Of a stretch of 64,000 bases of DNA, positions 468 through 2,251 are shown in pieces. The translations under genes and the position numbers were made by a program. The DNA is from Terrabacter sp. Root85. Its GTDB lineage: Bacteria; Actinomycetota; Actinomycetes; Actinomycetales; Dermatophilaceae. Within the stretch, counting starts at the first letter, position 1; every line of letters begins with the position of its first letter. A model generated the notes under the pieces. The model had not been told where the DNA came from. It was given only the letters and a program-made list of their open reading frames with translations, and did not search any database. The stretch covers positions 124,001 to 188,000 of the forward strand of contig NZ_LMIW01000010.1 in NCBI RefSeq assembly GCF_001429185.1, in the 5' to 3' direction.

Positions 468-1784
468 TCATGGCTCCAGACGGTGCAGGTCACGCGGGAA
501 GAGGGTGACCTCGCGGATGTTCTCGGCACCCGTCAGCCGCCCGACCCACCTTTCCAGACCGATGGCGAACCCGCCATGCGGAGGCATGCCGTGGGCGAAG
601 GCGTCGAGGTAGCCGGCCAGGACCTCGGGGTCGGTCCCGGTGCGCTCCATCGCCGCGGCGTAGTCCGAGGGCCGGTGCAGGCGCTGCCCTCCGGTCGTCA
701 GCTCGAGCCCGCGGAAGAGCAGGTCGAAGCTGTTGCTCCACCGCTCGTCGCCCGGCTGAGGGTGCGTGTAGAAGGGCCGCTTGCCCATCGGATAGCCCTC
801 CACCGCAAGGAAGTCCGAGCCGTATGCCGTCTTGGCCCACTCGCTGAGCGCGCGTTCGTGCGCGGGGCTGAGGTCGGGCTCGTCCGGGTCGGCGCCGACC
901 TTCGCGAGGGCGTCGCTGAAGTGGAGGACGGGGAACTGCTCCGGCACCTGCGGCAGCTCCACGCCCAGGAGCGCAGCGGCGTCGGCGGCATACTCCCGGA
1001 TGCCCTCGACCATGCCCGCGATCGCCTCGCGCAGGACGGCGAGCACGTCGTGGTGGTCACGGATGAAGCCCAGCTCGGCGTCGAGCGAGGTGTACTGCGC
1101 GAGGTGGCGCACCGTGTCGTGCGGCTCGGCCCGGAAGACCGGACCGACCTCGAAGACCCGCTCGAAGACCCCGACGAGCATCTGCTTGTAGAGCTGCGGG
1201 CTCTGCGCGAGGTAGGCCGTGCGTCCGAAGTAGTCGACGGTGAAGACGTTGGCCCCCGACTCGGTGGCCGTGCCGACGAGCTTCGGGGTCGCGATCTCGG
1301 TGAACTCGAGGCTTCCGAGCGCAGCGCGGAAGCCTCGCATCGACGCGCTCGCGAGCTGCCAGGCAGCCCGGTGGCGCGGGTGGCGCAGGGTCACCGCCGC
1401 GTGGTCGAGGTGCGTGGGCAGCCCGGCGCCGAAGGTCGGGCGCCACAGCTCGGTGGGTGGCGCGACCGCCGGCTCGGTGAGCGCGGTGATCACCGGTTCC
1501 ACGAGCTCGGCACCGCCGGGGGCCGACTCGTTGGCCGACACGGTGCCGGTCACCTCGACGACGGTCTCCTCGGGCAGACCCGAGAGCTGGTCGACGGTCT
1601 CGCGGTCCTTGACGACGACCTGGGCCAGGCCCGAGCGGTCGCGCAGCACGAGGAACGTGACGCTCGCGAGGACGCGGCGCCGGTGGATCCAGCCGGCGAG
1701 CGTGACCCGCTCGCCGGGTTCGACGGACGCGAGGTCCCGCGCGAGCACGCGCGGAGCAAGGGTCGTGGGTTGGGTTGGTTGCAT
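468..1784 (-). CDS. aspS: Non-discriminating aspartate--tRNA(Asp/Asn) ligase, archaeal-type
   Basis: A 438-residue class II synthetase of the short archaeal AspRS type (usual length about 430-440; bacterial-type AspRS is about 590). An N-terminal OB anticodon-binding domain (about 25-125) is followed by the catalytic domain with motif 2 (FRAEPHDTVRHL) and motif 3 (GFAIGLERWVGR) near the C-terminus. Two positions known to set tRNA discrimination in archaeal AspRS (W26 and K85 in the Thermococcus enzyme) are His34 and Pro89 here, the non-discriminating combination. It should therefore also charge tRNA(Asn) with Asp, to be amidated by GatCAB (not in this window). The ATG at 1784 follows the Shine-Dalgarno sequence GGAGGTG at 1791-1797 with 6-base spacing; the open frame runs further upstream, but that part overlaps the structured leader and is not homologous to the family. 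Confidence 0.93.
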   Translation of the reverse strand: MQPTQPTTLAPRVLARDLASVEPGERVTLAGWIHRRRVLASVTFLVLRDRSGLAQVVVKDRETVDQLSGLPEETVVEVTGTVSANESAPGGAELVEPVITALTEPAVAPPTELWRPTFGAGLPTHLDHAAVTLRHPRHRAAWQLASASMRGFRAALGSLEFTEIATPKLVGTATESGANVFTVDYFGRTAYLAQSPQLYKQMLVGVFERVFEVGPVFRAEPHDTVRHLAQYTSLDAELGFIRDHHDVLAVLREAIAGMVEGIREYAADAAALLGVELPQVPEQFPVLHFSDALAKVGADPDEPDLSPAHERALSEWAKTAYGSDFLAVEGYPMGKRPFYTHPQPGDERWSNSFDLLFRGLELTTGGQRLHRPSDYAAAMERTGTDPEVLAGYLDAFAHGMPPHGGFAIGLERWVGRLTGAENIREVTLFPRDLHRLEP

Positions 1785-1965
1785 TCCGTTCACCTCCAGA
1801 GGGTTGGTGCCCCGGAGGTGTGGGCGATGGGGAATGTCGCTGTGCCACCACACCTTCGCCGCCGCGGATCGCGGACGGCCTCTGGTCGTGCTCGGCTCAG
1901 GATCGTCAGGCCCGTCGTCGCCGTGCGCCAAGGGTAGGCGCTCAGCCCGCCGCCCACCAACCCGA
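1785..1965 (-). promoter_or_regulatory. Putative translational T-box riboswitch in the aspS leader
   Basis: Read on the minus strand. Helix A1 is GGTGTGG (1848-1854) pairing with CCACACC (1817-1823). Between them lies a 7-base bulge TGGCACA (1841-1847; consensus TGGNACC) and helix A2, GCGA (1837-1840) with TCGC (1824-1827). This is the shape of a T-box antisequestrator that binds the tRNA NCCA end. The alternative hairpin pairs CACCTCC (1814-1820) with the Shine-Dalgarno GGAGGTG (1791-1797); the two folds share CACC, so they exclude each other. The variable bulge base is C, matching discriminator G73 of tRNA(Asp) and tRNA(Asn). Upstream, GACGGGCCT...AGGCCGTC can form a short Stem I and CCGCGATCCGCGG (1863-1875) a small hairpin. 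I could not fix the specifier codon: GAC triplets are present, AAC is not. The call is inference from covarying shape and context. Confidence 0.7.
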
Positions 1966-2060
1966 TTGTCAGGCCACGCCCGGCGCCGGCGTCCTCCCGG
2001 AGACAAGCAGCTACACGAGACGCAGACAACAGAGCCGCGGCGCCGACGTTGCCTGGACGC

Positions 2061-2251
2061 AGCGCAGCGAGCGAGGAACGAGCGAGCGAAGCGGAGGAAG
2101 GCAACGTCAAAGGGGCGCCGCGGCACGCGCCGCAGCGAAGCGAGGCGCCAAAGGCGCAGCGCAGCGAGCGAGGAACGAGCGAGCGAAGCGGAGGAAGGCG
2201 ACGCCTGAAGGGCGCCGAGGCACGCGCGAAGCGAAGCGGAGCGCCAAGAAC
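2061..2251. repeat. Tandem 97-bp repeat, two copies
   Basis: A 42-base block (2061-2102) recurs exactly at 2158-2199, with the rest of a 97-base unit repeated imperfectly. The unit is rich in GCGAGCG/GCGAAGCG words. It fills the space between the acuC stop codon and the AspRS leader (about 2000), so it may act as the acuC transcription end. No ORF with coding character is seen in it. Confidence 0.85.

What the first reader, a model, noticed from the sequence alone, without database searches (positions are those of the whole stretch)
1785..1965. A translational T-box riboswitch controlling a second AspRS
Seen: a 7-bp/7-base bulge/4-bp antisequestrator with TGGCACA, and a mutually exclusive hairpin masking the GGAGGTG ribosome site of aspS. 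Known: in actinobacteria T-boxes are best known before ileS, where uncharged tRNA binding frees the ribosome site; the bulge base pairs with the tRNA discriminator. C here fits G73 of tRNA(Asp/Asn), whereas ileS T-boxes need A73. Inferred: aspS is expressed when tRNA(Asp) or tRNA(Asn) is uncharged. I do not know of this target being described in this group.
Basis: partly seen in the sequence, partly recalled or inferred. Interest (0 to 1): 0.85.

Follow-up and report, generated by a model that had tools for sequence, protein, structure and literature searches.

The report
Minimal aspartate T-box controlling spare synthetase
Just before a spare gene for the enzyme that loads aspartate onto its transfer RNA, this soil-type bacterium carries a very short RNA switch that most likely turns the gene on when that transfer RNA is empty; the switch belongs to a known kind (T-box), but no description of this target or of this stripped-down shape was found.

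Summary
Confirmed and sharpened. On the minus strand, 1926-1791, lies a compact T-box leader 5' of aspS2 (471-1784), an archaeal-type, probably non-discriminating AspRS in a Terrabacter-like genome that also has a canonical aspS. The 7-bp/7-nt bulge UGGCACA/4-bp antisequestrator covaries (57 leaders; 0/500 shuffles reach the covariation score) and shares bases with an 11-bp hairpin over the Shine-Dalgarno. GAC was found in 76 of 77 leaders, GAU in one. The genome's only tRNA-Asp found has GUC and G73 (pairs with UGGC); its ileS T-box has AUC/UGGU, with A73 in tRNA-Ile. So tRNA-Asp is the predicted ligand. A 21-nt T-box pattern in 396 genomes of the order gave 24 places, all 5' of AspRS genes (18 aspS2, 6 canonical). 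Unusually, the leader lacks both the Stem I apex that grips the tRNA elbow and Stem II/IIA-B; specifier and bulge lie 60 nt apart, against 146 in the same genome's ileS T-box. Long-Stem I relatives exist, so truncation may have recurred. tRNA response is untested. New variant of a known kind.

The parts
1931..1960 (-). promoter-like TTGGTG-18 nt-TACCCT just 5' of the leader
   Evidence: sequence; a TANNNT hexamer lies 13-15 nt 5' of the CGGCG of Stem I in 16 of 18 same-family leaders; inferred, no transcript data
1893..1923 (-). ultrashort Stem I: CGGC/GCCG basal helix, K-turn-like GAC bulge with GA/GA, GGG/CCU helix, 9-nt specifier loop CCUGACGAU
   Evidence: alignment A2. Helix closing the loop in 48 ultrashort leaders (30 distinct): 98.9% paired, 0/500 shuffles for the covariation score, 6/500 for pairs with two-sided change. 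The scan that picked the loops demanded two closing pairs; the third pair, not demanded, is standard in 29 of 30 with 14 two-sided changes
1905..1907 (-). specifier GAC (Asp)
   Evidence: GAC in 48 of 48 ultrashort loops (47 by scan, L138 by eye); with the codon left free, GAC fills this place in 46 of those 47, the next triplet in 15; own tRNA-Asp anticodon GUC
1880..1892 (-). [quoted passage not shown]
   Evidence: 13-15 nt in all 18 leaders of A2; specifier-to-bulge distance 60 nt here, 146 nt in the same genome's ileS T-box
1858..1879 (-). Stem III, flanked by AGAG and GAA
   Evidence: native halves pair better than swapped halves, 0 of 2000 permutations (36 distinct; 3 of 40 leaders dropped for lack of the anchor)
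1817..1854 (-). antisequestrator: A1 (1854-1848/1823-1817), bulge UGGCACA (1847-1841), A2 (1840-1837/1827-1824)
   Evidence: covariation; UGGC complements G73 of tRNA-Asp
1791..1820 (-). sequestrator hairpin covering the SD GGAGGUG (1797-1791), exclusive with A1
471..1784 (-). aspS2: archaeal-type AspRS2, 438 aa
   Evidence: NF003483/PRK05159 'aspartate--tRNA(Asn) ligase' 529 bits, cut-off 353; TIGR00458 348 bits, under its cut-off 368; nearest solved relative 1n9w, E 3e-107

Best explanation
A tRNA-Asp-specific translational T-box. With charged (or no) tRNA-Asp the leader folds its SD into the 11-bp hairpin and little AspRS2 is made. Uncharged tRNA-Asp pairs its anticodon GUC with the GAC of the 9-nt Stem I loop and its GCCA end with UGGC of the bulge; this holds A1 together, A1 takes CACC away from the SD hairpin, and ribosomes start on aspS2. 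The cell thus induces a spare AspRS when tRNA-Asp charging by the canonical AspRS falls (Asp shortage or AspRS inhibition). Shown by computation: the elements, their covariation, codon and discriminator match, and exclusivity of the two folds. Inferred: tRNA binding, charging sensing, the ON switch, the physiological purpose.
For: A1/A2 covariation, Stem I, Stem III. GAC in 76 of 77 leaders, GAU in L065 (L037, L069 and L138 by eye). Own tRNA-Asp: GUC, G73; own ileS T-box: UGGU, AUC, with A73 in tRNA-Ile; of the 48 tRNA matches one is tRNA-Asp and one tRNA-Asn (one match not recognised by ARAGORN). 24 of 24 matches of a T-box-core pattern in 396 genomes lie 5' of AspRS genes; reversed control pattern 3 matches (5 of the 24 are loci already in hand). 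A model built from 18 same-family leaders (R1) finds leaders of Rhodococcus (5e-16), an Acidimicrobiales MAG (6e-13), Amycolatopsis (3e-9). SD opening costs a median 10.6 kcal/mol in the free leader, 5.8 with the antisequestrator forced; easier in 38 of 39. Own canonical aspS (831 bits) shows no such T-box.
Against: No experiment. RF00230 does not detect the leader. Forcing the antisequestrator costs a median 7.5 kcal/mol and leaves the SD mostly in weaker pairs (median open probability 0.12; only 1 of 39 rises by more than 0.5), so the modelled switch is not clean two-state; L023 runs the other way. Two parts held necessary for tight tRNA binding (Stem I apex, or Stem II when the apex is gone) are absent. 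The last bulge base is A, not the usual C, in the window and most of its clade. R1 also gives spurious matches up to 23.5 bits.
Confidence: 0.88

Rival explanations
1. The leader senses tRNA-Asn (as the Clostridium acetobutylicum AspRS2-GatCAB T-box is said to, recalled) so as to raise Asp-tRNA(Asn) for GatCAB.
For: AspRS2 has H and P where 1n9w, named non-discriminating, has them and 3nel has W and K (that these residues set discrimination is recalled); GatB present, no AsnRS over cut-off; tRNA-Asn also has G73.
Against: Specifier is GAC in 76 of 77 leaders and GAU in one. The long-class pattern allowed only GAC/GAU, so there the codon rests on its place after GAA.
Confidence: 0.05
2. A plain SD-sequestering hairpin or a protein-binding leader that merely resembles a T-box.
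For: Rfam finds nothing in the window; SD occlusion alone would also give regulation.
Against: GAC loop, UGGC bulge, covarying A1/A2, Stem I and Stem III, and long leaders recognised by RF00230 before orthologous genes, down to E 9e-12.
Confidence: 0.04
3. A decayed T-box: it still folds but no longer binds tRNA well, having lost both the elbow-binding apex and Stem II.
For: Both modules absent; [quoted passage not shown]
Against: Specifier loop, bulge, A1/A2 and an SD-masking arm are kept in the 18 same-family leaders of A2 while Stem III changes compensatorily; linker length stays 13-15 nt.
Confidence: 0.07

Closest known systems
Translational ileS T-boxes of Actinobacteria (Seliverstov 2005, PMC1262725, passages; Sherwood 2015, recalled and as cited in PMC7583486)
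   Same: T-box bulge, antisequestrator versus SD-sequestering hairpin; ultrashort Stem I with the specifier in an apical loop
   Different: target is AspRS2 with GAC/UGGC instead of ileS with AUC/UGGU; no Stem II or Stem IIA/B in the window's clade
Transcriptional T-boxes (Rfam RF00230)
   Same: AspRS2 genes of Chloroflexi and Sulfobacillus assemblies carry long leaders that RF00230 finds (L049 9e-12, L065 1e-10)
   Different: the window leader has no elbow-binding apex, no Stem II, and masks the SD instead of making a terminator
Glycine T-boxes (glyQS)
   Same: no Stem II (PMC7583486 passage)
   Different: they keep the long Stem I with the elbow-binding apex (recalled); the window leader does not
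C. acetobutylicum AspRS2-GatCAB T-box (Saad 2012, 2013; titles seen in the reference list of PMC4206432, content recalled)
   Same: T-box on an extra AspRS gene; one of three aspS genes there is T-box-controlled (PMC2494555 passage)
   Different: reported to answer to tRNA-Asn (recalled); here GAC = Asp, translational, and the own gatB lies on another contig

Membership tests
T-box riboswitch | antiterminator/antisequestrator with a 7-nt UGGN bulge between A1 and A2, covarying | tested here: met
   UGGCACA here, UGGCACC in many relatives
T-box riboswitch | specifier codon in Stem I matching the gene's amino acid and a host tRNA | tested here: met
   GAC, tRNA-Asp GUC
T-box riboswitch | N of UGGN complements the discriminator base of that tRNA | tested here: met
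   C with G73; internal control ileS U with A73
T-box riboswitch | Stem III before the antisequestrator | tested here: met
   0 of 2000 permutations reach native pairing
T-box riboswitch | score over the Rfam RF00230 gathering cut-off | tested here: not met
   no match; but none of 14 related loci passes, nor the own ileS T-box (16.2 bits against 93), so this marks the model's reach rather than a defining trait
T-box riboswitch | response to uncharged versus charged tRNA | not testable with these tools
   needs binding or reporter assays
Translational (class II) T-box | alternative hairpin that masks the SD and excludes A1 | tested here: met
   the model's ON state leaves the SD partly paired
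Ultrashort-Stem I ileS-type T-box | specifier in the apical loop of a short K-turn stem, no elbow-binding apex | tested here: met
   K-turn judged from sequence only
Ultrashort-Stem I ileS-type T-box | Stem II with S-turn and Stem IIA/B pseudoknot | tested here: not met
   13-nt linker only; distance 60 against 146 nt

The most novel reading that the evidence does not exclude
A smallest-known T-box class: specific tRNA-Asp recognition with neither the elbow-binding Stem I apex nor Stem II/IIA-B, i.e. by anticodon and acceptor pairing across a 13-nt hinge, reached by repeated truncation of long Asp T-boxes and shared between two different kinds of AspRS gene.
Probability: 0.6. Interest if true: 0.75.

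Novelty: new variant of a known kind. Interest (0 to 1): 0.62.

Why it matters
Accounts seen here (passages of PMC7583486 and PMC10651847) hold Stem II, with its S-turn and IIA/B, essential or critical for tRNA binding by truncated ileS T-boxes. This family contains, before one gene and for one tRNA, long leaders with and without room for Stem II and ultrashort leaders with and without an extra hairpin: a natural deletion series that makes the minimal requirements for tRNA sensing directly testable. It also adds AspRS to the targets of translational T-boxes and suggests an inducible spare synthetase that could matter when AspRS is inhibited.

Tried and rejected
Rfam: negative in the window at both thresholds and at gathering for 14 related loci. 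'K helix' (A2 loop CCCC/GCCC with GGGG/GGGC just 3' of A1, which could make the OFF state a pseudoknot): looks covarying by eye, but 465 of 2000 swaps pair as well and slid controls come close (0.244 against 0.214 and 0.206); not claimed. Swap tests that were not significant in the 40 actinobacterial leaders: SD-hairpin extension 842/2000, anti-SD/SD core 64/2000, A2 1679/2000, A1 115/2000; the A1/A2 claim rests on the column-wise count over 57 leaders. Those 40 are the 57 less 13 leaders from other phyla and 4 near-copies (L006, L009, L012, L033); energies use 39 of them (no SD found in L061) and fold only from A1 to 25 nt past the SD. Phylum-wide search with R1, under strict filters: 14 of 396 genomes at E<=0.1, 3 strong, all before AspRS genes, one of them the window. 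Of the weak hits, two read like other T-boxes and the rest like chance, judged by eye. First script read minus-strand loci unoriented; redone. The specifier pattern was too loose; replaced, which miscalled L138 as long (corrected by eye). The tree is a quick one without bootstrap, with long branches meeting near the root.

Full report
What is there. The minus strand of 1960-1784 reads: promoter-like TTGGTG-18-TACCCT, Stem I, a 13-nt linker, Stem III, antisequestrator, SD, ATG of aspS2. The gene product matches NCBIfam 'aspartate--tRNA(Asn) ligase' PRK05159 with 529 bits (cut-off 353); TIGR00458 gives 348, under its cut-off 368. The nearest solved relative is 1n9w, named non-discriminating and archaeal-type AspRS2 (E 3e-107), which shares H and P where 3nel has W and K (that these residues mark non-discriminating enzymes is recalled). 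The genome (G000) has a second, canonical aspS on another contig (PRK00476, 831 bits, cut-off 443), GatB (449 bits, cut-off 315) and no AsnRS over cut-off (best 175 against 342.6, this gene itself). The nearest named relatives are Terracoccus sp. 273MFTsu3.1 (98%) and Terrabacter sp. Ter38 (97%).

Is it more than chance. I examined 61 AspRS2 loci: 22 from the 22 of 117 genomes with a match (own included) and 39 of the 52 loci. The 13 left out were ten copies of contigs already in hand, one truncated gene (L068) and two short spurious matches (L076, L077). 57 of 61 carry a UGGN bulge with pairing A1/A2 arms 5' of the gene; the misses are L025 (39% identical enzyme), L070 (a partial gene match), L073 and L074. 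Over the 57 leaders (49 distinct) 95.5% of A1/A2 cells pair and 8 of 11 pairs change on both sides; 0 of 500 shuffles reach the covariation score, 1 of 500 the number of two-sided pairs, and versions slid by 1-3 columns stay far below. A 21-nt pattern of the T-box core, with up to one mismatch, gave 24 matches in 23 of 396 genomes of the order, against 3 that I count for the reversed pattern. All 24 lie directly 5' of an AspRS gene: 18 aspS2, 6 canonical aspS, the latter 74-83% identical to the own canonical AspRS. Five of the 24 were already in hand, and the pattern itself fixes UGGCAC. A covariance model built from 18 same-family leaders (R1) finds leaders of other lineages at E 1e-17 to 3e-9, and one of Chloroflexi and one of Sulfobacillus at 8e-5 and 3e-4; spurious matches reach 0.001. 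It finds neither the own canonical aspS leader nor the own ileS T-box; upstream of the own canonical aspS there is no UGGNAC[A/C] on the coding strand.

Which tRNA. In 47 leaders a scan for a 9-nt loop (U before, purine after the codon, at least two closing pairs, codon GAC, GAU, AAC or AAU) gave GAC each time (L138 added by eye). U, purine and two pairs are thus demanded, not found; the free parts are the codon and further pairs. With the codon left open and three pairs required, GAC fills the place in 46 of these 47 leaders and the next triplet in 15. The helix covaries (98.9% paired; 0/500 for the score, 6/500 for two-sided pairs, 18/500 for pair types), and the third, undemanded pair is standard in 29 of 30 distinct rows. 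In 29 long leaders the codon follows GAA or a variant as in ordinary T-boxes: GAC in 28, GAU in L065 (pattern limited to GAC/GAU; L037 and L069 by eye). The own tRNA-Asp has anticodon GUC and G73, tRNA-Asn GUU and G73, tRNA-Ile GAU and A73; no second tRNA-Asp or tRNA-Asn is among the 48 tRNA matches (one match unrecognised). The own ileS T-box has AUC and UGGU. Bulge and specifier both follow the gene's amino acid within one genome, and GAC points to tRNA-Asp rather than tRNA-Asn.

How it works. The SD hairpin takes CACC from A1's 3' arm. In a nearest-neighbour model of 39 actinobacterial leaders the free RNA holds the SD shut (median opening probability 0.001; L023 is an exception at 0.96). 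Forcing the antisequestrator costs a median 7.5 kcal/mol and lowers the cost of opening the SD from 10.6 to 5.8 kcal/mol (38 of 39 easier, 29 by at least 3 kcal/mol). The SD is not fully free in the modelled ON state. Pairing of GCCA with UGGC plus stacking would have to pay the 7.5 kcal/mol; that is inference. Purpose, also inference: an inducible spare AspRS beside a canonical one without this T-box.

What is unusual. The distance from specifier to bulge is 59-62 nt in 19 ultrashort leaders (18 of the window's family and one Acidimicrobiales MAG), 76-113 nt in the other 29 (an extra small hairpin there, read by eye), 54-63 nt in eight long leaders that keep upper Stem I motifs but have no room for Stem II, and 80-216 nt in the other 19 long ones measured (L037 and L069 not measured). 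In the own ileS T-box it is 146 nt (read). The window's leader thus lacks both the elbow-binding apex and Stem II/IIA-B. Passages of two papers hold Stem II (PMC7583486) or IIA/B and the S-turn (PMC10651847) essential or critical for tRNA binding by ileS leaders. On an AspRS2 tree of 74 rows (quick method, no bootstrap) long and short leaders need at least 5 changes. Seventeen of the 18 minimal leaders form one clade beside the long-leader rows L018, L024, L036, L038 and L059; the eighteenth, L022, groups with long L024. Leaders could have moved apart from genes, so repeated truncation is suggested, not shown.

Known or new. Passages of Seliverstov 2005 (PMC1262725) speak of actinobacterial T-boxes only before ileS. 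Wels 2008 (PMC2494555, passages) counts 32 T-boxes in 12 of 19 genomes filed as Actinobacteria, eighteen or more of them in Symbiobacterium, and names ileS. T-boxes of his genes in Actinobacteria are mentioned in the abstract of PMC9413887 (search listing), so ileS is not the only known target in the phylum. The TBDB paper (PMC7778990, parts 1-3 of 5 read) scanned actinobacterial reference genomes with a translational model, so some orthologues may be listed there; its table could not be read. My searches (open-access PubMed Central only, listings and some passages) showed no aspS target in Actinobacteria and no T-box lacking both modules. Sherwood 2015 and Saad 2012/2013 were not read (recalled or seen as citations).

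Noticed in passing
L133, L134, L135, L138, L141, L142 (around position 1500): Six same-family genomes carry the Asp T-box 5' of canonical aspS, with the start codon 92-122 nt after the bulge (63 in the window) and no GGAGG just before it, so their expression platform must differ.
   Followed up: partly
L078 1391-1650 (G000:C8, about 448.6 kb): The own genome has an ileS T-box (AUC, UGGUACC) with a long Stem II region, scored only 16.2 bits by RF00230.
   Followed up: partly
window 2058-2091 and 2155-2188: Two exact copies of a 34-nt GC-rich element 5' of the leader; no other copy within 3 mismatches in the own genome, yet similar stretches lie 5' of aspS2 in several relatives (seen by eye).
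   Followed up: partly
window 1832-1810 (minus strand): CCCC of the A2 loop could pair with GGGG just 3' of A1; GCCC/GGGC, CCCG/CGGG or UCCCUU/AAGGGA in relatives. Tests inconclusive; might be a pseudoknotted OFF state.
   Followed up: partly
L118 and L127, around 1501: T-box-like leaders in other members of the phylum before a DUF39-like gene (UGGU) and a Trp-like gene (UGGC), named by eye from the translated ORF.
   Followed up: no
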